A stretch of 64,000 bases of DNA from a virus, in IMG/VR virus record IMGVR_UViG_3300017971_000224, positions 40,104 to 104,103 of that record; one strand, given 5' to 3'. Of the stretch, positions 5,284-30,859 are shown piece after piece. How positions within the stretch are numbered: the first letter of the stretch is position 1; every line of letters begins with the position of its first letter. The notes beneath the pieces were generated by a model that saw only the letters and a program-made list of their open reading frames with translations, was not told where the DNA came from and searched no databases. The position numbers and the translations under genes were made by a program.

Positions 5284-5796
5284 GTGGCAAAAAAACGAAA
5301 TCGGCTGAGGGAGCTTCTTCTCATCAAGGATCATCTCCTTGGTGAGAAGATTGTTCTCGATGTTTGGGATGATCTCAAGCTGAACGAAGACGAACCTGAA
5401 GTAATGATGCAGGATTGTCTTTTCGGGCACCAGTTGTCTGGGCATCTTGAGGCTGTGGCAGAGGCGCGATATGAACTTGGCAAGGTCGAGTTAGATCACG
5501 TCTATGCCGAGATGGACAATTTCGCGCGTGAGATGGAGGTCATGGCAAGACCAACAGATGCTAAGGTAAAAGCATGGATTCTACGTGAAGGAAAATATAT
5601 AACCAAACGCAAAGAATTAATTGAATTAAAAATGAAGTATCAATTCTTGAAAGTATTAAGTAAATCATTCGTAATGAAGGCTGATTTCATTCGTACGAAA
5701 GTGGCAAGCAGACGCGCTGAGCTCGCGATGCCAGCGACTTCTGTTGAGACAGTGAAGAGAAAGAAAAAAAAGAAGAAGAAAAAATCGGAGGAATAA
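5284..5796 (+). CDS. putative recombination mediator (UvsY-like by position)
   Basis: 170 residues, GTG start. Predicted all-helical, with the charged segment DAKVKAWILREGKYITKRKE and a long amphipathic helix after it, ending in a run of lysines. It lies between HU and the SSB/RecA pair, where phages often encode the UvsY recombination mediator, and the pattern of a helical body with AKVKAWI..KREL is similar. Sequence similarity is not strong enough to be sure; it could be another SSB- or recombinase-loading factor. Confidence 0.5.
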   Translation: MAKKRNRLRELLLIKDHLLGEKIVLDVWDDLKLNEDEPEVMMQDCLFGHQLSGHLEAVAEARYELGKVELDHVYAEMDNFAREMEVMARPTDAKVKAWILREGKYITKRKELIELKMKYQFLKVLSKSFVMKADFIRTKVASRRAELAMPATSVETVKRKKKKKKKKSEE

Positions 5797-6789
5797 ATGG
5801 CCGTCAAGACTGACCTGGCCAAGCTAGGTAAACGGGCCGCCGATCATAAAGCTGGTAGGGACAGATATGACGGCCCAGGCAATTTCATAGTTGAAGCAGA
5901 TTCAAGCAGGTTCATCATTCTCTGCCCACCGCACGAAAACATGGGTGGTTATCCATTCGTCGAAAACATGTATCATCACCGTGATATACCACGGGATGCT
6001 AATGGTAGTTTCAACATCCGCTGTATGCGGAATAACTACAAAGATGATACTAATAAATGCGCACCTTGTACAAAGATGGTCAAATTCAGAAAGAAGCGCA
6101 AGGACAAGGGCGACAAATGGGATGAGAAAGCGCGCGAACACGCACCAAAGTTGAAGCCAATTGGGCAGGTGATCGACATTACCTGTATCATGCGTGCCAA
6201 TGGCGAGATTAAGAAAAAAGTCAAGCCGTGTTTTGGCGCTTATGGCGACGAAGACGGTTGTGACAAGTGCTATATGCGCGACGCGTGTGAGGACCTCCCC
6301 AAGAAGTACTATTGCCCAGTGGGCGTGTGGGAGGAGCTGCTCGACCATTTCGAGGACGAGGGCGACATCACAGACTTGAGTAAGGCTATCCCAATTCGTA
6401 TTAAGCGTAAGGGTTCTGGTCGCTACGATACGAAGTACAAGACCAAGGCCTTCCCAAAGTCGGCTATCGAGTTCCCATCCAAAGCCAGGAAGCGTATCGA
6501 GAAAGCGCTCTATGATCTAAGTACTCTGGATCCAAAACCAGAGGGTACGGCGGATGAGATAAAAGAAAAGTACAGAAAGTTCTTCTCACTGGAGGATATA
6601 GATACTGACACCAGTGGCGATGATGATGACGACGAGCCCAAGCGTCGTCCGCGGTCTGGTGGTAAGAAAAAATCTGCAAAGAAAAATAACAAAAAGAAGT
6701 CCAGTGAGAATACGGACAAAAAGAAACGCGGCGAGAAGCTCAGGAACAAGTTGAAGAAGAAAGCGAAGAAGGGCAAACTCGACCGTTAG
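5797..6789 (+). CDS. single-stranded DNA-binding protein (gp32-like)
   Basis: 330 residues with a strong GGAGG ribosome site. The start and core (GNFIVEADSSRFIILCPPHEN, SFNIRCMRNNYK) resemble phage SSBs of the gp32 type. Two cysteine clusters are visible: CMRN...CAPC, and CFGAYGDEDGCDKCYMRDAC, the latter a likely zinc site. The C-terminus switches from an acidic stretch (DTDTSGDDDDDE) to a long Lys/Arg-rich tail, the reverse of the acidic tip usual for SSBs. Its partners are probably the recombinase at 6802 and the polymerase. Confidence 0.8.
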   Translation: MAVKTDLAKLGKRAADHKAGRDRYDGPGNFIVEADSSRFIILCPPHENMGGYPFVENMYHHRDIPRDANGSFNIRCMRNNYKDDTNKCAPCTKMVKFRKKRKDKGDKWDEKAREHAPKLKPIGQVIDITCIMRANGEIKKKVKPCFGAYGDEDGCDKCYMRDACEDLPKKYYCPVGVWEELLDHFEDEGDITDLSKAIPIRIKRKGSGRYDTKYKTKAFPKSAIEFPSKARKRIEKALYDLSTLDPKPEGTADEIKEKYRKFFSLEDIDTDTSGDDDDDEPKRRPRSGGKKKSAKKNNKKKSSENTDKKKRGEKLRNKLKKKAKKGKLDR

Positions 6790-8200: not shown

Positions 8201-9310
8201 ATGACCCATATTATTACCAGTGCCGACTGGCATTTACGTAATTCTGATTCCTATGGCGTCTTTGATCACGATGGTGTCAATGACTTTCTGACTTATCGCG
8301 TTTCCGCGGCGAGGCAAACAATTCAATCAGCGATAGACTGCGGTGGCCATTTGGTCATTGCTGGTGACATGTTAGATGATAAAGTGGTTGATTCTGTAAC
8401 TATGTATCATGCTTCTGAACTTGTGCGTATGATGCAGGGCACCAGGTTGGCTGTGTTGTTGGAGGGCAACCATGGTTATGACAGTAAGAGTAATGCACAT
8501 TCTTCAATTGCTCATTGGAAGCATTTGGCTAATAAAAATATAAAGATTATTACATATCCAAAAGTGATACATAAAGATAATATTAGTTATCATTGTATTC
8601 CAGCTGTAAATGCTCTTGAAATAAATTTTGCTAAGATTGTTGATAGTCTTTGGTGCCATAAGAAAAAAGGCAATGTCAATATACTTGTAATACATGGGCC
8701 TGTTATTGGAGCTAGATTTGATAGCGGTATTAAATCTAAAACCGGTATCAAAATGAAAGATATCCATAGGGCAAGTAAGAAATATAATTATATTGTATGT
8801 GGTGATTTTCATAGATATCAAATGTTATTTGATAATGTTTGGTATACAGGTTCTTTAATACAAACTTCATTGCGTGATAAAAATCAGGATAAAGGATATC
8901 AAATAATAGATTTAGATAATGATGAAGTTAAATTTGTGAAATTAAATGGTCCAGAGTTTATTGAATTAGACTGGGAGATTACAAAAAAGATTAGTCCTAT
9001 TATTAGAAGGCCACATTTATATAAAGGAACATTAAAGAATAGTATTTGTGTCATACGTATATCAGGAACTTCATCAGAATTTAATACTGTATCAAATGAA
9101 TTAGATTCAGTTAGAGAATCACTCATAGAAAATGGATCAATTCGAGTTTTTATAGATAAGCAGACTACGGAATCAAAGAGAAAAAAAGCTACCATTAGTA
9201 TGAATATGGGATTTCAAGAAATGATTGAGTCATATGTGTCTTATAAGAAGCGTTCACTGCCAGCCAAAAAGAAGCAAGTCATAGAAAAAGGTTTGTTTTA
9301 TATAAGGTGA
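8201..9310 (+). CDS. sbcD: SbcD/Mre11-like nuclease subunit
   Basis: 369 residues with the calcineurin-like metallophosphoesterase motifs in order: SADWH (D-x-H), AGDMLDD (GD), EGNHGYD (GNH), VIHGP, and CGDFHRY (GDxH). It should be the nuclease partner of the SbcC-like ATPase at 13667, comparable with T4 gp47/gp46, processing DNA ends for recombination. The C-terminal half is AT-rich and less conserved. Confidence 0.92.
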   Translation: MTHIITSADWHLRNSDSYGVFDHDGVNDFLTYRVSAARQTIQSAIDCGGHLVIAGDMLDDKVVDSVTMYHASELVRMMQGTRLAVLLEGNHGYDSKSNAHSSIAHWKHLANKNIKIITYPKVIHKDNISYHCIPAVNALEINFAKIVDSLWCHKKKGNVNILVIHGPVIGARFDSGIKSKTGIKMKDIHRASKKYNYIVCGDFHRYQMLFDNVWYTGSLIQTSLRDKNQDKGYQIIDLDNDEVKFVKLNGPEFIELDWEITKKISPIIRRPHLYKGTLKNSICVIRISGTSSEFNTVSNELDSVRESLIENGSIRVFIDKQTTESKRKKATISMNMGFQEMIESYVSYKKRSLPAKKKQVIEKGLFYIR

Positions 9311-9314
9311 AAAA

Positions 9315-11945
9315 GTGGAAAACAAAATCACGCTTAAGTTCGAGCCATATTTCATATCATCCGAAGAAGATCTTGATGAACATCTCAATTGGATACAAAG
9401 AGATGCTGTTATAAAAGGTGCTGATGGCAGTATAATTTTTCAACAAAAAGATGTTGAATTCCCTGATTTCTGGTCCGATACAGCTGTCAATATAGTATCT
9501 GATAAGTACTTCAGAGGTATTCTCGGTTCTGATGAACGAGAATATAGTTTGAAACAGTTGGTGAACCGTGTTGTCGATACAATTACTCAGTATGGTATTG
9601 AGTTAGGATATTTTGATGATGAGAACGCTAAAATATTTCAGTGTGATTTGAAGTTTCTTATTTATATGCAATATTACTCTTTCAATTCTCCAGTTTATTT
9701 CAATGTTGGTATTGATCCGAATCCACAAGTCGCCGCGTGTTTCATACTTGGCGTAGATGACCACATGCCATCCATTATGGAATTGGCACGCACAGAAGCT
9801 ATGATTTTCAAGGGAGGTTCAGGCGCCGGTACTAATTTTTCCAAGCTCCGCAGCAAATACGAGCATCTATCAGGAGGAGGTAAAGCTAGTGGGCCTGTGT
9901 CTTTCATGCGTGGTTTGGATAGCTTCTCTGGCGTGATTAAGAGTGGTGGTAAAACTAGACGTGCTGCGAAGATGGCTATCCTTGACATAGACCATTTAGA
10001 TATATTGGAATTTGTTGAATGCAAGCTGATAGAGGAAGGTAAGGCTTCTGCTCTTATTCAAGCAGGATACAGCCCACATTTCGAAGCAGATAACAATGCG
10101 TATTCTTCTGTTGCGTTTCAAAATGAGAATCACACCATTAGAGTATTTGATAAATTCATGCAAGCTGTAGAACAAGATGATGAATGGGATTTACGTTACG
10201 TAACAAATCAACAACGCAAATACGTTAAAGCGCGTGAAATATTCATGCGTATCTGTGAATGCGCACACCAATGCGGCGATCCTGGGTTGTTATTTTCTGA
10301 TACAGCGAATCGATATCATACAACTCCAGCTTCTGGTAAAATTGTGGCTACTAATCCTTGTGGCGAATATATTGATATTGATGATTCCGCATGCAATTTA
10401 GGTTCATTCAATCTTATGCGTTTTGTACAACATCACGATAGTCATTTTTCATTTGATGTTGATGCATTTAAGGCGGCCGTTAGGATCGCAACGATAGCGC
10501 AGGAAATCATTATTGATAAAGCTAGTTATCCAACCGATAAGATCAAGCGTAATGCGGTTAATCATAGGCAATTAGGGCTTGGATATTCAAATCTAGGTAC
10601 GTTGATTATGTATTGTGGTTATCCATACGACTCACGCGACGGACGTGCACTGGCTGCTTCTATTTCTGCCTTGTTGACCTCTTCTGTATATAACACTAGT
10701 TGTGATGTTGCTCTTGTGAAGGGTACGTTTAAAGAGTTTGATAAGAATAAGGATAAGATGCAGCAAGTTTTGTGGCGTCATGCTTCTAATGTGAAAGATA
10801 TTGAGACAGATGTAGATGGTATTAAAGAGATCATAGATGCTGTTGAAGATACGTGGCAGTCTGTTACGGAGAAATATCAACATCATGGTATTCGCAATTC
10901 AAAAGCTACAGTGATAGCCCCAACAGGCACTATCGGGTTTATGATGGATTGCGATACGACTGGAGCTGAGCCAGAACTTTTTCTTGTAAAACACAAGACA
11001 CTGGTAGGTGGTGGTAGTATTAAAATCGTTAATAGGTCTATAGGTCATGTGCTGGCTAATTTAGGATATGACCAAAAAACAATATCTAAGATTGCAAATT
11101 ACATAACTGAGAATGAGACATTGGAACGATGTAAGTTAATCAAAAAAGAACATATTCCGATTTTTGATTGTGCTTTTGGCAGTAGTGAGAAAAGTAGAGT
11201 CATTGCCCCAGAAGGTCATGTCAGAATGTTGGCTGCTATTCAACCACATATATCTGGAGGTATTTCAAAGACAGTGAATCTTCCTGAAAAGGCTTCTGTG
11301 CAGGATGTATATAATATTTTTATGTTAGCGCACAAGCTTAAGCTAAAAGCTATTACAATTTATCGTAACAATTCGAAGGGCTCGCAACCGTTAAATGTGA
11401 AGAAAAATGATGATGATAAAAAGCCTAAGCAGGTAAAGAGAAAGATGGCTGCAGAGCGCAAGGCCTTAGCCCATGATTTTAATATTCAAGGCCATAAGAT
11501 CTATCTTCATTGTGGACTTTTCCCAGATGGCACATTGGGTGAAATTTTCATTCGTGCGTCTAAAGAAGGTTCCACTATGACGGGGTTATTGGATTCAATT
11601 GCCGTTTTAACATCTACCTCATTACAATATGGTGTACCTCTCGAGGTGCTTTCAAAGAAGCTGGCATATACTACTTTTGAGCCACAGGGATTTACACCTA
11701 AGATGGGTTATGCTCGCAGTATAACAGATTATATTTTTCGTTATTTGCTCCAGAAATTCAGCGGTCACGTTTTGGATGGTGACACAGTGATTGAAGATGA
11801 TGAAGAAGCTCCTGTGCCGCCACGTGCTTTGCTGGACACCCCTACATACGACGCTCCGCCGTGTCCCAACTGCGGTTCGATCATGGTCAGGAATGGTTCG
11901 TGTTTTAAGTGTGAGACATGTGGAGAGACTAGTGGGTGTTCATGA
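9315..11945 (+). CDS. nrdJ: adenosylcobalamin-dependent ribonucleotide reductase (class II)
   Basis: 876 residues, GTG start after AGGTG. Class II reductase signatures: GGSGAGTNFSKLR, ATNPCGEY with the active-site Cys, SACNLGSFNL, and the substrate loop VIAPTGTIGFMMDCDTTGAEP. The C-terminus carries the redox/zinc cluster CPNCGS...CFKCETCGETSGC. It converts ribonucleotides to deoxyribonucleotides without oxygen but needs B12, so the host should make or import cobalamin. No small subunit is present, as expected for class II. Confidence 0.95.
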   Translation: MENKITLKFEPYFISSEEDLDEHLNWIQRDAVIKGADGSIIFQQKDVEFPDFWSDTAVNIVSDKYFRGILGSDEREYSLKQLVNRVVDTITQYGIELGYFDDENAKIFQCDLKFLIYMQYYSFNSPVYFNVGIDPNPQVAACFILGVDDHMPSIMELARTEAMIFKGGSGAGTNFSKLRSKYEHLSGGGKASGPVSFMRGLDSFSGVIKSGGKTRRAAKMAILDIDHLDILEFVECKLIEEGKASALIQAGYSPHFEADNNAYSSVAFQNENHTIRVFDKFMQAVEQDDEWDLRYVTNQQRKYVKAREIFMRICECAHQCGDPGLLFSDTANRYHTTPASGKIVATNPCGEYIDIDDSACNLGSFNLMRFVQHHDSHFSFDVDAFKAAVRIATIAQEIIIDKASYPTDKIKRNAVNHRQLGLGYSNLGTLIMYCGYPYDSRDGRALAASISALLTSSVYNTSCDVALVKGTFKEFDKNKDKMQQVLWRHASNVKDIETDVDGIKEIIDAVEDTWQSVTEKYQHHGIRNSKATVIAPTGTIGFMMDCDTTGAEPELFLVKHKTLVGGGSIKIVNRSIGHVLANLGYDQKTISKIANYITENETLERCKLIKKEHIPIFDCAFGSSEKSRVIAPEGHVRMLAAIQPHISGGISKTVNLPEKASVQDVYNIFMLAHKLKLKAITIYRNNSKGSQPLNVKKNDDDKKPKQVKRKMAAERKALAHDFNIQGHKIYLHCGLFPDGTLGEIFIRASKEGSTMTGLLDSIAVLTSTSLQYGVPLEVLSKKLAYTTFEPQGFTPKMGYARSITDYIFRYLLQKFSGHVLDGDTVIEDDEEAPVPPRALLDTPTYDAPPCPNCGSIMVRNGSCFKCETCGETSGCS

Positions 11946-20490: not shown

Positions 20491-20545
20491 ATGATAACAA
20501 AAACAGCTTGACAATATCAGTGACTCAGTTATTATGGCGGCTTCG

Positions 20546-20599
20546 AAACACCGTAACCATCTTCTGCAGGCGCCCTGGAGAAACGTGGTTACGGTGTTT
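20546..20599 (-). other. long hairpin between tRNAs
   Basis: Perfect 14-bp inverted repeat (20546-20559 with 20586-20599) whose loop folds further (TTCTGCAG with CTGGAGAA, one mismatch). No T-tract. It may be an RNase III-type processing site in the tRNA precursor. Confidence 0.6.
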
Positions 20600-20604
20600 T
20601 GCTT

Positions 20605-20679
20605 TGCCCACCCTGAGATTCGAACTCAGACTTTCACGGACCTGAACCGTGTCCCTCTACCAAGTTGGGGTAGGTGGGC
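20605..20679 (-). tRNA. tRNA with Leu anticodon CAG, short variable arm
   Basis: Acceptor GCCCACC, loop TTCAGGT, variable region AAAGT, A discriminator, no CCA. Its 5' end abuts the structured RNA element at 20680. Confidence 0.88.
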
Positions 20680-20916
20680 TGGGGAAGGTACTGGTCGGAT
20701 TCTCACCGGCGGTCCACCGATAGGGCCATGGTGGTCACTCACCCAGTGCGTTACCGGGAGTTGCTTATTCTGGCCCATAGCGCGACCCGTCGCGCACGCA
20801 GTACCACAGGAAATGCAGCAGCGGGACACCCCGGCGTCAGGATCTTGAGGCATCGGAACCGGGTCTAACATCCTCAAGTCTGTGTCCAGGCCACCTCGAC
20901 CTCTCGACTGCTGCGA
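20680..20916 (-). ncRNA. unidentified structured RNA, 237 nt
   Basis: It fills the space between two tRNAs exactly. Nested perfect helices: domain 1 has 20815-20821 with 20908-20914 (7 bp), 20824-20829 with 20882-20887 (6 bp) and 20844-20850 with 20872-20878 (7 bp). Domain 2 has GGTACTG 20687-20693 with CAGTACC 20799-20805 (7 bp), 20723-20728 with 20771-20776 (6 bp), and the GCGCGA/TCGCGC hairpin at 20780-20795. Clearly GC-richer than its surroundings. It does not match RNase P, tmRNA, 6S or riboswitch cores that I know. Strand is assumed from the flanking tRNAs. Confidence 0.65.
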
Positions 20917-21001
20917 TGTGCGGGGGAGGATTCGAACCTCCATGTTTAGCCTGAGGCGGCAGGTTTACAGCCTGCTGGTTTCACCGTTCACCCACCCGCA
21001 C
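20917..21001 (-). tRNA. tRNA-Tyr (GTA)
   Basis: Class II with a 17-nt variable arm, acceptor GTGCGGG, loop CTGTAAA, A discriminator, no encoded CCA. Confidence 0.92.
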
Positions 21002-21010
21002 ATAAATCAA

Positions 21011-21083
21011 TACTCGTGCAGGGATTCGAACCCCGAACATCCTGGTCCTAAGCCAGGCGCCTCTGCCGTTGGGCTACACGAGC
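21011..21083 (-). tRNA. tRNA with Leu anticodon TAG, short variable arm
   Basis: Acceptor GCTCGTG (G1-T72 wobble), loop CTTAGGA, variable region ATGTT, A discriminator. Confidence 0.88.
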
Positions 21084-21122
21084 AAATGAGGTAATGAAAT
21101 GTCGAAAGGAGGTAAAAAATCA

Positions 21123-21207
21123 GGTACTGGCAGGATTTTGGCTACCTGCGGTATGGTCTCTTGACCCTGCTTTGTGGCAGTCGACACCCGTGCCGATCCG
21201 CAGTACC
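21123..21207 (-). ncRNA. second structured RNA element sharing ends with the 237-nt RNA
   Basis: The 85-nt segment is closed by GGTACTG (21123-21129) and CAGTACC (21201-21207), the same helix as in domain 2 of the element at 20680, with the same flanking bases (GGATT after the first arm, CGCAGTACC at the other end). Internal GGTC-TCTT-GACC and GGCA/TGCC hairpins are possible. No protein is evident in 21084-21210. Confidence 0.5.
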
Positions 21208-21210
21208 TTT

Positions 21211-21489
21211 CTAGAACTTCTTCCCTCTACGCGCTTGGTGCTTTTGCCAACGTTTCCTCTGGCGCTCGAGGAAATCGTTTTTCAATGGCGCGAGCTCCTC
21301 CAGCACGATGTGGGAAGAGGTTTGGCTATCTTCAGAAAAAACCAACACCGTATCTTGATTTATATACGTTGTTGATTCTTTACACCACATACATTCTTGT
21401 ACCCTTATTCTCTGGTATTCGTCAATATAAACATTAAGCTGTGCGCCACAAACATTGCAATAATATTGTTTTGGTTCAATAGCTATCAT
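21211..21489 (-). CDS. zinc-ribbon protein
   Basis: 92 residues. The N-terminus has YYCNVCGAQLNVYI followed by ECMWC (two CxxC). The C-terminal half is helical and basic. Its ATG overlaps the upstream stop by 4 bases (ATGA). Confidence 0.72.
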   Translation of the reverse strand: MIAIEPKQYYCNVCGAQLNVYIDEYQRIRVQECMWCKESTTYINQDTVLVFSEDSQTSSHIVLEELAPLKNDFLERQRKRWQKHQARRGKKF

Positions 21490-24416: not shown

Positions 24417-24421
24417 GTGAA

Positions 24422-24554
24422 TCGGGAGAGGTGGAATCGAACCACCGACCTGGGAGCTCCATATGCTGAAGTGGCGTCTTAGTTCCATGTGTGAGGCACG
24501 AGCGTTAGTTTAGACGTCACTTACATCCCCGCTCTACCACTGAGCTATCTCCCG
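24422..24554 (-). tRNA. tRNA-like gene with 61-nt insert in the anticodon loop
   Basis: 133 nt. Acceptor CGGGAGA, D-arm GCTC/GAGC and T-arm GGTGG-TTCGATT-CCACC are intact, A discriminator. The anticodon stem halves are GGGAT and CTCCC (T31-C39 mismatch), separated by 68 nt instead of 7. The insert closes on itself with an 11-bp stem with one mismatch (24469-24479 with 24512-24522) and carries TTCAGCATA at its 3' end. If it splices after U33 the anticodon would be TGG. It could also be a non-coding tRNA mimic. Confidence 0.6.
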
Positions 24555-24559
24555 AAAGG

Positions 24560-24700
24560 TGGACGGGCTAGGATTCGAACCTAGAAAAACTATGCTGAAA
24601 CAACTTCTGAGTTCTCAATCGTATTGAGTGATGAAAGAAATTGTTGTTGCTTGCGTTGCTAGCTCTATAGGCTAGTGCCTTACCATTTGGCTACCCGTCC
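24560..24700 (-). tRNA. tRNA-like gene with 69-nt insert in the variable region
   Basis: 141 nt. Acceptor GGACGGG, D-arm GCC/GGC, T-arm CTAGG-TTCGAAT-CCTAG. A full anticodon arm CTAGC-CTATAGA-GCTAG is present (nominal ATA, an unusual A34). Then come 69 extra nucleotides ending in TTCAGCATA before the TTTTT variable loop. The insert holds an AACAAC/GTTGTT closing stem (24599-24604 with 24643-24648) and a CTCAAT-CGT-ATTGAG hairpin. Removing it restores a perfect 72-nt cloverleaf. Confidence 0.6.
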
Positions 24701-27861: not shown

Positions 27862-28845
27862 TTACGCACCTGCTGAGCACAGAGACACATAAGGGTAGCC
27901 TTGCCGTTCCTTATACAGAATTTGCCCAGCCAGTTGTTGGTTGGCTACAGTCGCCACACTCATCTTGGGCAGTCTGCTGTCGGCTGCACCTTCTGACAGC
28001 AGCGGCTGTTGTGTCACGTGTTCGATCGTTTTTTCGCTCAGCAGTTTGACCTGCGCATTGGCGTTTTTCAGTGCGCGGTGAATACCAGCCAGCGATTTGA
28101 CCTCCACGCTCATGGGCACAAAGAATTTTGACGCTTGCCTGTGCCGCTTTTGATACTGAATTGCGAGTGAGCCGTAGCAGACTCTTATCAGTGGTTCCCA
28201 CACACGTTCCCAGAACGCCATGTTTGGAGCGCGTTCGACACCAACCACGTTTTCTCCCAGCAAGATGATGGCACCAATTTGTTTTGGCACCAACTCAAAC
28301 TCAGCTACGAACTCATCCAGCTGCTTTTCAAAGTGCTTCAAGAAGTAAGTGAGGTGGCCACCAGTATGTGGCACTCCACTTTCTTTGTTCAGACTTCTGA
28401 TGTGCGGCCAGATCTTGTCATAACCTTGTCTGTGTCTCATACTGAGAGCATGAGATCGTATTGATGCTGGCAATACCAACATGGTGATCGCTTTCTGGTC
28501 TCTGATGTAACCACCTTGGCTGTCCTCGATGCACATGGCTGTCTCGATGGACTTGCGGCCGTTTGCTTTGACCAAAAACGCGCTTGGCACAGCGTGGTCT
28601 TGTGCACGTTCTCTTGTCACCCAACCAGCACCTGTCGGTACGATGCTTGGTCGTGTGCTGTCTGTATTGCGCACTTGAACCGTACCATAGTTCGATGTTT
28701 CCACATGGAAGTCTGGTGGTGCGAAGTCGTCATCTTGCGCGTCGCCCTCGTCGATGAGCGGGATGACAGACATGTGGCCCACGGTTTGGGTTCTGCCACG
28801 TCCCATTCCTCTGAGGATTTCTTCGACTGTGAGGTTGCGTGTCAT
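27862..28845 (-). CDS. ARPP-1 (DUF6569)-like protein
   Basis: 327 residues. Features fit the ARG-and-rhodanese-associated family: a beta-rich start (MSVIPLID), a glycine-rich block (IVPTGAGWVTRERAQDHAVP), CIEDSQGG, an LPASIRSHA segment, and near the end KQIGAIILLGENVVGVERAP followed by WERVWEPLI. Molecular function is unknown. It overlaps the TROVE-like gene (28842) by ATGA, so the two are translationally coupled. Confidence 0.72.
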   Translation of the reverse strand: MTRNLTVEEILRGMGRGRTQTVGHMSVIPLIDEGDAQDDDFAPPDFHVETSNYGTVQVRNTDSTRPSIVPTGAGWVTRERAQDHAVPSAFLVKANGRKSIETAMCIEDSQGGYIRDQKAITMLVLPASIRSHALSMRHRQGYDKIWPHIRSLNKESGVPHTGGHLTYFLKHFEKQLDEFVAEFELVPKQIGAIILLGENVVGVERAPNMAFWERVWEPLIRVCYGSLAIQYQKRHRQASKFFVPMSVEVKSLAGIHRALKNANAQVKLLSEKTIEHVTQQPLLSEGAADSRLPKMSVATVANQQLAGQILYKERQGYPYVSLCSAGA

Positions 28846-30455
28846 GACAGTGCCTTTCTCGTCTCAACTGACCCCAGGGCCAGACGTAGTAGGGCGTTGA
28901 TTCCATTCACTGGCTCTGCCTCGATCATCCCTCGGATGAAGGTGGCTGTGAGCTGCCCAGGTTGCTGCACTGGCATTGTTGGTACACCGTCGTTGGGCGC
29001 CAGCTCACGTGCACCTTTCGACTCGGCAGCGAACACCGGGTTTAAATGATACACAGGCGTATCAATACCGATCTCCCGCACGTGGTGCATGACCTCAGCG
29101 AAGCGCCCGGCTGGTGCATTCTCGTATCCGTCGCTGATCACGAACACAGCCTCGGGTTCGTCGTTCAGCGCCTCCACCAAGCTGTCAGCAATGGCTGTGT
29201 CACCCATCGGACGGACGAGACCATCGCCAGCTTCGATGTCTGTACCACTGACATGGTACTCCTGACTCTCATCACCGGTGTGCAACAGGGTGTCGCGCAT
29301 GGCCAAGGCCACCGCCAGGGGTCGCAGTGGTTGGCTGCGGTGACCAGCCATCGATTGTGACGCGTCCACGATGACGGCCACCGATTTGTAGCGCGTTGGG
29401 AACATCGCTGCGGTCTCCTTCGCCTTCTCGTCCAAGGCGTTCGCAATCTCTTGCGTCAGCCCACACTCGAACGCGTAGAGGTATAGGCGCACAGCGTCGT
29501 ACTTCGTCGGGTCCATGTCGACTTCGACGTTTGCGCGCTTTGCTCTTTTCTGTACTGCCATCTTCTGGTGGCCGGTGAGCTTGCCGCCCTTGGCCACAAG
29601 TTTCAGCACATCCTCCTTCTTCGTGTCGGGGTGGTATGTGCTTCTCAGGCCCTCCAGGACCTCCAGAGGAAGTTTAGAGCCAGCCTTGATATCTTCCTTC
29701 GCTTTTTCAAACGAAACGAAGAGAGGCAGGCTCAGGCGTTCACGCACGTCCAGGATGAAGCCCACGCACTCGAGCACTTCCTTGTATCTGTTCAGCTGGC
29801 AGTGCTTCCGGATGTTCTGCTCGAGAATCGTTAGCTCCTTCTTCTTTCGGTAACGCCCACCCTTCTTCAGGATCGATCCGATGATTGATGTTAGCCGTAG
29901 GCCCCAGGCGTGGGTCAGTGCCGCCCGCATTTTTGTCCTGTACTTCACCGACCAGAGTTGCAGTCTCGGGCTCGAGAGCAGCGTGCGCAGGATCAGTTTT
30001 CTTGTCCTGGCGTTGTTCGCCTTCTTCAGACCCAGGGATGCATCACCCACCCGCAGTCCATCGATCAGCTTCAACATGCGCTGTGGTGGCAGAGCTTGGA
30101 ACAGGTGGTACAGCACCATGCGTTCTTGTCCCGGCTCGAGGAACGCTTGTTCCACGCCGTTCCGGGGGAATGACAGCAGCTTCTTCATACCGATCTGCAC
30201 GCTGCGGTCGGTCAACCCTGGCAGCGTCAACAGCACGGCGTATACGTCCCTCTCCAGGCCAAAGAGTTCGTCGTGCACACGCAGTTCGGCAGCCTGTTGT
30301 TCGGCGCGCGTGTTGTAGTGCGTCGCGCGCCCCATGGAGCTGACAGCTGTGTCCAGGAATGAGCAGACGGATTTGCTCATCTTCTTCACAGCAGTCTTGT
30401 TCCGTGGCATCCACAGCAGCTGTTCATTCGAGTGCGTTTGCACCAACGTATTCAT
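28842..30455 (-). CDS. TROVE/Ro60-like protein with vWA domain
   Basis: 537 residues. N-terminal ~330 residues are helical repeats in the manner of the TROVE module (LPLEVLEGLRSTYHPDTKKE, KLTGHQKMAVQKRAK). C-terminal vWA domain with MIDAS ligands VDASQSMAG (D-x-S-x-S), MGDTAIADS (T) and VFVISDGYE (D). Ro60 and its bacterial relatives bind Y RNAs and misfolded RNAs and help RNA degradation. Its position in a tRNA/structured-RNA region fits that role. The TROVE assignment rests on layout, not on a database match. Confidence 0.68.
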   Translation of the reverse strand: MNTLVQTHSNEQLLWMPRNKTAVKKMSKSVCSFLDTAVSSMGRATHYNTRAEQQAAELRVHDELFGLERDVYAVLLTLPGLTDRSVQIGMKKLLSFPRNGVEQAFLEPGQERMVLYHLFQALPPQRMLKLIDGLRVGDASLGLKKANNARTRKLILRTLLSSPRLQLWSVKYRTKMRAALTHAWGLRLTSIIGSILKKGGRYRKKKELTILEQNIRKHCQLNRYKEVLECVGFILDVRERLSLPLFVSFEKAKEDIKAGSKLPLEVLEGLRSTYHPDTKKEDVLKLVAKGGKLTGHQKMAVQKRAKRANVEVDMDPTKYDAVRLYLYAFECGLTQEIANALDEKAKETAAMFPTRYKSVAVIVDASQSMAGHRSQPLRPLAVALAMRDTLLHTGDESQEYHVSGTDIEAGDGLVRPMGDTAIADSLVEALNDEPEAVFVISDGYENAPAGRFAEVMHHVREIGIDTPVYHLNPVFAAESKGARELAPNDGVPTMPVQQPGQLTATFIRGMIEAEPVNGINALLRLALGSVETRKALS

Positions 30456-30618
30456 AGCATCACCTCTCCCGTGGAGTTCTCCATCAAATTGTTTGTGGAG
30501 GAAAGGAAAGATCTAGCGGTAATTACGGAAGCTGGGTCTTTGACATAAACTATTTGTCTGAACCAGCATCACAGTTCCCGCTAAAAGAAATGGTTGAGTC
30601 AATTAGAGCATCACGTTT

Positions 30619-30692
30619 TCTAAGTGACTGGACTTGAACCAGCTACCTACGGTTTTCAGGACCGTTGCTCTTTCCAACTGAGCTACACTAAA
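30619..30692 (-). tRNA. degenerate tRNA, anticodon TGA, short variable arm
   Basis: Acceptor TTTAGTG/CACTTAG with a T-T mismatch, D-arm GCTC/GAGC, stem ACGGT, loop CCTGAAA with C33, variable region AGGTA, A discriminator. Nominally Ser(TCA), but not the class II shape of the other serine tRNAs. Upstream lies a repeated leader (see repeat at 30693). Confidence 0.6.
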
Positions 30693-30757
30693 GTGACCCT
30701 CAAGTTCTCAACCAAAACAAGGCGTTTAAAGCGAGGGAAGTAGGACATCACGATTGA

Positions 30758-30830
30758 GTGAAAGAGAAGGATTTGAACCTTCAACCTTCGGCTCTGCATG
30801 CCGATGCTCGACCACTCGAGCTGTCTTCCT
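30758..30830 (-). tRNA. tRNA-Cys (GCA)
   Basis: Stem TCGGC, loop ATGCAGA, T-arm GAAGG-TTCAAAT-CCTTC. Acceptor AGGAAGA pairs at six of seven positions and the discriminator is C, so it may be degenerate. Confidence 0.78.
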
Positions 30831-30859
30831 AAAGTGACCTCCAAGTTCTCGCTAAAAAA

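What the first reader, a model, noticed from the sequence alone, without database searches (positions are those of the whole stretch)
20680..21207. Candidate new ncRNA family with closing helix GGTACTG:CAGTACC
A 237-nt and an 85-nt element share the same terminal helix and flanking bases (3' AATCC-N2-CCAGTACC when read leftward). The larger one has five further perfect helices of 6-7 bp and fits exactly between two tRNAs. No known RNA class fits.
Basis: partly seen in the sequence, partly recalled or inferred. Interest (0 to 1): 0.77.

Follow-up and report, generated by a model that had tools for sequence, protein, structure and literature searches.

The report
tRNA-derived RNAs in phage tRNA cluster
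Two related folded RNAs lie among the tRNA genes of an uncultured virus (very probably a bacteriophage); they look like duplicated tRNA genes that kept the outer tRNA frame but lost a usable anticodon, so they are unusual but not a wholly new kind of RNA.

Summary
On the minus strand the helix GGTACTG:CAGTACC closes two elements: E1 (20687-20805, 119 nt, not 237) and E2 (21123-21207, 85 nt). The rest of the 235-nt spacer is a separate folded element, E3 (20815-20914). E1 and E2 share at least 28 identical bases at matching positions, and their helices changed in step. Shuffled sequence essentially never gives this.

"No known RNA class fits" is only partly right. Neither E1 nor E2 matches Rfam. 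However, a covariance model made from E1 and E2 alone, run over 0.65 Mb of other phage DNA, found four places, all on tRNA genes, three starting on the exact first base. E1 carries a T-arm-like stretch at the exact tRNA position. GGTACTG is an ordinary tRNA acceptor stem, present in viral tRNAs of six isotypes. The best reading is a duplicated, non-decoding tRNA derivative, made and processed with the cluster. No homologue was found outside copies of this same virus, so function is inferred.

The search also showed that the virus encodes a Ro60 homologue preceded by Y-RNA-like RNAs, two of which enclose "tRNAs". E1 and E2 lack the Y motif.

The parts
20687..20805 (-). E1: 119-nt tRNA-like RNA; 7-bp acceptor-like helix GGTACTG:CAGTACC, hairpin GCGCGA-CGGG-TCGCGC in the D-arm position, anticodon arm replaced by GGGCCA...TGGCCC enclosing about 42 nt, T-arm-like GCCGG-TGAGAAT-CCGAC
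   Evidence: (full-length tRNA alignment, 7.6 bits)
21123..21207 (-). E2: 85-nt paralogue; same closing helix, hairpin TCGGCA-CGGG-TGTCGA, short arm CTGC-CACAAA-GCAG in the anticodon position, variable-arm-like GGTC-AAGA-GACC, T-arm-like GCAGG-TAGCCAAAAT-CCTGC
   Evidence: cloverleaf -31.7 versus MFE -31.9 kcal/mol
20815..20914 (-). E3: 100-nt folded element between tRNA-Tyr and E1, closing helix GCAGCAG:CTGCTGC, inner helices GGACAC:GTGTCC and CTTGAGG:CCTCAAG; not homologous to E1/E2 by any test made
   Evidence: z -1.95; 10 of 300 shuffles fold as well
20915..21002 (-). tRNA-Tyr(gta), neighbour
21010..21084 (-). tRNA-Leu(tag), between E2 and tRNA-Tyr
20605..20679 (-). tRNA-Leu(cag), 7 nt beyond the 3' end of E1
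21211..21489 (-). 92-aa ORF ending 3 nt before E2; same strand

Best explanation
E1 and E2 are two copies of one tRNA-derived RNA that no longer decodes. Shown here: a tRNA-sized frame (7-bp acceptor helix; a hairpin in the D-arm position; a T-arm-like 3' part in the exact tRNA register) on the same strand as, and packed among, the tRNA genes; helices that changed in step after duplication; no canonical anticodon arm (E2 has a 4-bp stem with loop CACAAA and no U33; E1 has a 42-nt extension instead). Inferred: they are transcribed with the tRNA cluster, their ends are made by the tRNA-maturation enzymes that recognise the acceptor/T half, and they persist as stable tRNA mimics. The role I consider most likely is to occupy host enzymes that act on tRNAs, for example as decoys for tRNA-cutting nucleases, rather than to translate. 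The mimic role is my weakest step (about 0.3 by itself). Decay to functionless tRNA remnants is the main alternative.
For: (1) The model R3, built only from E1 and E2, gave four matches at E <= 10 in 652,582 bases of phage loci not chosen for this motif. All four lie on ARAGORN tRNA genes, three starting on the exact first base (tRNA-Ser L040:25348, tRNA-Phe L004:6948, tRNA-Tyr L055:16000; E 0.008, 0.023, 0.12). (2) The model of this virus's own tRNAs (R1), run without filters, aligns to E1 over 1-74/74 with ends 20685-20805. (3) E1 has GGTGAGAATCC, 9 of 11 identical to GGTTCGAATCC, at the fixed tRNA distance from the acceptor strand: 27 of 200,000 shuffles of the interior do as well. (4) GGTACTG:CAGTACC is the acceptor of ordinary viral tRNAs for Cys, Thr, Asp, Phe, Leu and Ile. 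(5) Between E1 and E2 four pairs changed on both sides; slid structures give none. (6) Same strand as, and packed among, the tRNAs. (7) The same array has two clear tRNAs with inserts of about 60-70 nt, one in the anticodon arm as in E1.
Against: Rfam's tRNA model does not report E1 or E2, even at E <= 10. R1 gives E1 only 7.6 bits (E 0.25) and E2 no full-length match. E1 prefers another fold of its 3' part by about 6 kcal/mol, and one T-stem pair is broken (C-A). R3's matches to tRNAs have modest E-values, several loci searched were found because they hold tRNAs, and R3 was built on hand-trimmed copies of two sequences. The two-sequence covariation is reached by 33 of 500 shuffles. No independent homologue shows selection, and no transcript data exist.
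Confidence: 0.6

Rival explanations
1. E1 and E2 are decaying tRNA genes (pseudogenes), duplicated with the array and without present function.
For: tRNA-derived features with a lost anticodon arm; one broken T-stem pair in E1; phage tRNA clusters gain and lose genes readily (general knowledge).
Against: After duplication the D-position stem changed at three pairs on both sides and still pairs, while the acceptor helix and loop stayed identical; E2's cloverleaf is within 0.2 kcal/mol of its minimum.
Confidence: 0.3
2. E1 and E2 are a true new ncRNA class, not derived from tRNA, that sits in the tRNA cluster for co-processing (as GOLLD and ROOL sit near tRNA islands) and binds an unknown protein through the GGTACTG helix and the ACGGGT hairpin.
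For: No Rfam match; the best-conserved hairpin loop (ACGGGT) is not a typical D-loop; both copies keep it with three compensatory changes in its stem; E2 does not align to the tRNA model.
Against: The pair's own model finds tRNA genes almost exclusively; tRNA T-arm register in E1; no relatives found beyond copies of this virus.
Confidence: 0.17
3. E1 and E2 are members of the virus's Ro60 RNP: additional Y RNAs or clients of the Ro60 homologue encoded at 28842-30455.
For: The same virus encodes a Ro60-fold protein and Y-RNA-like hairpins, two of which enclose tRNA-like domains; the bacterial Y RNA YrlA contains a tRNA-like domain (PMC7790460).
Against: E1/E2 lack the Y stem motif (stem-ACTT/ACTG-stem-TTCAGA) and the Y model R2 gives no match there (but R2 does not recognise the window's own Y candidates well either). 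They lie about 9 kb from the Ro60 gene, whereas every R2 match at E <= 0.1 in other viruses lies within about 1 kb upstream of it.
Confidence: 0.08

Closest known systems
tRNA (Rfam RF00005), including tRNA-like pseudogenes
   Same: 7-bp acceptor-type helix, hairpin in the D position, T-arm register, class II size of E2, location in a tRNA cluster, matches between the pair's model and tRNA genes
   Different: No canonical anticodon arm, T-loops altered (TGAGAAT; TAGCCAAAAT), score below any tRNA cut-off
Phage T4 species 1 and 2 RNAs (rnaC, rnaD)
   Same: RNAs annotated as small and stable, 139 and 119 nt, at one end of a phage tRNA cluster; rnaC also ends in a T-arm-like CCGGGTTCGAATCCCGG hairpin
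   Different: No sequence similarity noted; T4 RNAs are documented RNAs, E1/E2 are predictions
YrlA and other bacterial Y RNAs (RF02553)
   Same: Non-coding RNA that mimics a tRNA; a Ro60 homologue is present in the same virus
   Different: E1/E2 have no Ro60-binding Y stem; Y candidates in this virus are elsewhere (30515-30857)
GOLLD and ROOL RNAs
   Same: Structured phage RNAs of unknown function near tRNA islands (PMC12286853)
   Different: Very much larger and ornate; no Rfam match here

Membership tests
tRNA | 7-bp acceptor stem | tested here: met
   perfect GGTACTG:CAGTACC in both
tRNA | T-arm: 5-bp stem and 7-nt loop T-T-C-R-A-N-T in register | tested here: inconclusive
   E1: register right, loop TGAGAAT, one mismatch; E2: perfect stem but 10-nt loop
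tRNA | anticodon arm with 7-nt loop and U33 | tested here: not met
   E2 loop CACAAA on a 4-bp stem; E1 about 42-nt extension
tRNA | score above the Rfam cut-off of 29 bits | tested here: not met
   no report; 7.6 bits for E1 with the local model
tRNA | maturation by RNase P and CCA addition | not testable with these tools
   needs an assay
Y RNA (YrlA and relatives) | Ro60-binding stem motif | tested here: not met
   model R2 without filters: no match in E1/E2, and the ordered motif is absent on reading; R2 covers one sub-type only
tmRNA, GOLLD, ROOL and other Rfam families | match to the family model | tested here: not met
T4 species 1 RNA type | stable tRNA-cluster RNA made by tRNA processing | not testable with these tools
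   location agrees; transcript not tested

The most novel reading that the evidence does not exclude
E1 and E2 are functional, non-decoding tRNA mimics made by a virus that also carries a Ro60 homologue and tRNA-bearing Y RNAs, so that this virus runs a whole set of tRNA look-alikes that divert or guard host tRNA-acting enzymes during infection.
Probability: 0.2. Interest if true: 0.65.

Novelty: new member of a known kind. Interest (0 to 1): 0.38.

Why it matters
Phages often carry unexplained RNAs inside tRNA clusters. Showing that such an orphan pair is tRNA-derived turns 'no known class' into a testable idea: tRNA-shaped RNAs that are processed like tRNAs but cannot decode. Beside a viral Ro60 homologue with tRNA-bearing Y RNAs, it would let one ask directly whether viruses deploy tRNA look-alikes against host tRNA surveillance.

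Tried and rejected
(a) A cross-phage family defined by the GGTACTG acceptor: odd tRNA-like hits in L065, L074 and L082 suggested it, but an open census found 55 places, nearly all ordinary tRNAs of six isotypes; rejected. (b) Exact-pattern matches in L041, L042, L044 and in six bacterial genomes: their folds do not resemble the pair and the chance expectation is a few; read as chance. (c) E1/E2 as Y RNAs: no match. (d) T4 rnaC/rnaD as homologues: no similarity seen; kept only as an analogy. (e) The model of the pair in the whole records behind 18 other loci (most of them Ro60-bearing): no match outside the window's virus and its copy. (f) BLAST of the region against phages: the matches listed lie on the neighbouring true tRNAs. 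(h) Literature: no held paper on the T4 species 1/2 RNAs or on phage Y RNAs was found; the main papers on bacterial Y RNAs are not held.

Full report
What was checked. The window lies in a 104-kb virus record with a cluster of tRNA genes on the minus strand between 19.5 and 31 kb. It is very probably a bacteriophage: it has a DnaE-type polymerase and other phage replication genes. The finding concerns two elements in that cluster.

The observation. Read on the minus strand, GGTACTG...CAGTACC closes E1 (20805 to 20687, 119 nt) and E2 (21207 to 21123, 85 nt). It contains E1 plus a second unit, E3 (20815-20914), with its own closing helix GCAGCAG:CTGCTGC. The spacer has six compatible perfect helices of 6-7 bp, against 2.9 in shuffles (2 of 300 reach six). 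Two elements using the same 7-bp helix within 2 kb occur 0.017 times per shuffle of the array. E1 and E2 further share CG after the 5' arm, the hairpin loop ACGGGT, and AATCC-N2-CCAGTACC. They are paralogues.

Known families. Rfam gives no match to E1 or E2, even at E <= 10.

What they are. I built a covariance model (R3) from E1 and E2 only, on copies trimmed by hand to align them. In 652,582 bases of phage loci not selected for this motif it gave four matches at E <= 10, and all four lie on tRNA genes. Three begin on the exact first base: tRNA-Ser L040:25348, tRNA-Phe L004:6948, tRNA-Tyr L055:16000. Conversely, a model of this virus's tRNAs (R1) aligned to E1 from end to end, with a long insert in the anticodon arm, though at only 7.6 bits. 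E1 has GGTGAGAATCC at the tRNA distance from the acceptor strand (9 of 11 identical to GGTTCGAATCC; 27 of 200,000 shuffles). E2 has a perfect 5-bp T-stem there with a 10-nt loop, and its cloverleaf is within 0.2 kcal/mol of its minimum. Between the two, four base pairs changed on both sides and one is broken; sliding the structure by 1 to 3 columns leaves no such pair. With two sequences this is suggestive, not proof: 33 of 500 shuffles do as well.

A hypothesis tested and dropped. Three odd tRNA-like hits with the same acceptor (L065, L074, L082) suggested a cross-phage family. An open census of viral tRNAs with acceptor GGTACTG showed that nearly all are ordinary tRNAs (Cys, Thr, Asp, Phe, Leu, Ile). 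The acceptor is therefore ordinary.

Distribution. Outside copies of the same virus (L002/L003, identical over 13 kb) no homologue was found in IMG/VR or in 84,980 species genomes with exact-pattern scans, nor with R3 in the records behind 18 other loci, one of which is the copy itself. Such scans miss diverged relatives.

How it probably works. They lie on the same strand as the cluster: E2 starts 3 nt after the stop codon of a 92-aa ORF, and E1 ends 7 nt before tRNA-Leu. The simplest course is co-transcription and trimming by tRNA-maturation enzymes (inferred). Without a canonical anticodon arm they should not decode (E2 loop CACAAA; E1 has a 42-nt extension). Their likeliest use is as tRNA mimics (inferred). 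[quoted passage not shown] The chief alternative is decay.

Context found on the way. The gene at 28842-30455 (minus) has no Pfam match at 1e-3, but its AlphaFold2 model (mean pLDDT 80.9) matches Ro60/TROVE structures. The ten best rows by Z (12.4-16.6) are all Ro60/TROVE proteins aligned over about 400 residues, including Ro60 of Thermus phage phiLo (9l5y); the rows below them match only the vWA domain. It is followed by an ARPP-1 gene. Relatives occur in about 16 distinct large virus contigs. Directly upstream of the gene in many of them are hairpins with the order stem-ACTT/ACTG-stem-TTCAGA. For 14 of them 98% of cells pair, with 38 cells changed on both sides (helices were chosen by eye, loops cut). 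The model from these (R2) finds 15 places at E <= 0.1 in 417 kb, all within about 1 kb upstream of the Ro60 gene. The window has three of its own variant: 30722-30857 and 30592-30713, which enclose ARAGORN's tRNA-Cys and tRNA-Ser, and 30515-30585. These are Y-RNA candidates, seen by eye and not matched by R2. Phage Ro60 is already known (PMC7824862; PDB 9l5y).

Verdict. A real paralogous pair, best read as tRNA-derived non-decoding RNAs. It is a new member of a known kind, of moderate interest, with function not shown.

Noticed in passing
window 28842-30455 (-): Ro60/TROVE-fold protein by structure prediction, without a significant Pfam match, followed by an ARPP-1 gene (27862-28845); the pair recurs in large virus contigs, about 16 distinct ones for the Ro60 homologue.
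   Followed up: yes
window 30515-30585, 30592-30713, 30722-30857 (-): Three Y-RNA-like hairpins just upstream of the Ro60 gene; two enclose domains that ARAGORN calls tRNA-Ser and tRNA-Cys.
   Followed up: partly
L056, L058, L059, L060, L062, L063, about 9000-9900 (L056: 490-742): Tandem Y-RNA-like hairpins immediately upstream of Ro60 homologues, strongly covarying; not tested further against known bacterial Y RNAs.
   Followed up: partly
window 24559-24700 and 24421-24554 (-): Two clear tRNAs with inserts of about 60-70 nt (variable region; anticodon arm) that ARAGORN misses; no tRNA match longer than about 91 nt was seen among 118 in seven other phage loci.
   Followed up: partly
window 20541-20600 (-): Very stable hairpin with a 14-bp perfect stem (z about -6) between two tRNA-Leu genes; no Rfam match.
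   Followed up: no
L050 about 5720-5890, L053 about 9740-9890: tRNAs directly upstream of the Ro60 gene with long insertions that resemble a Y-type helix placed inside the tRNA, seen by eye only.
   Followed up: no
L065 5612-6257: A poor tRNA, a manA RNA just under its cut-off and an 83-nt match to tmRNA that lacks most of the molecule lie side by side.
   Followed up: no
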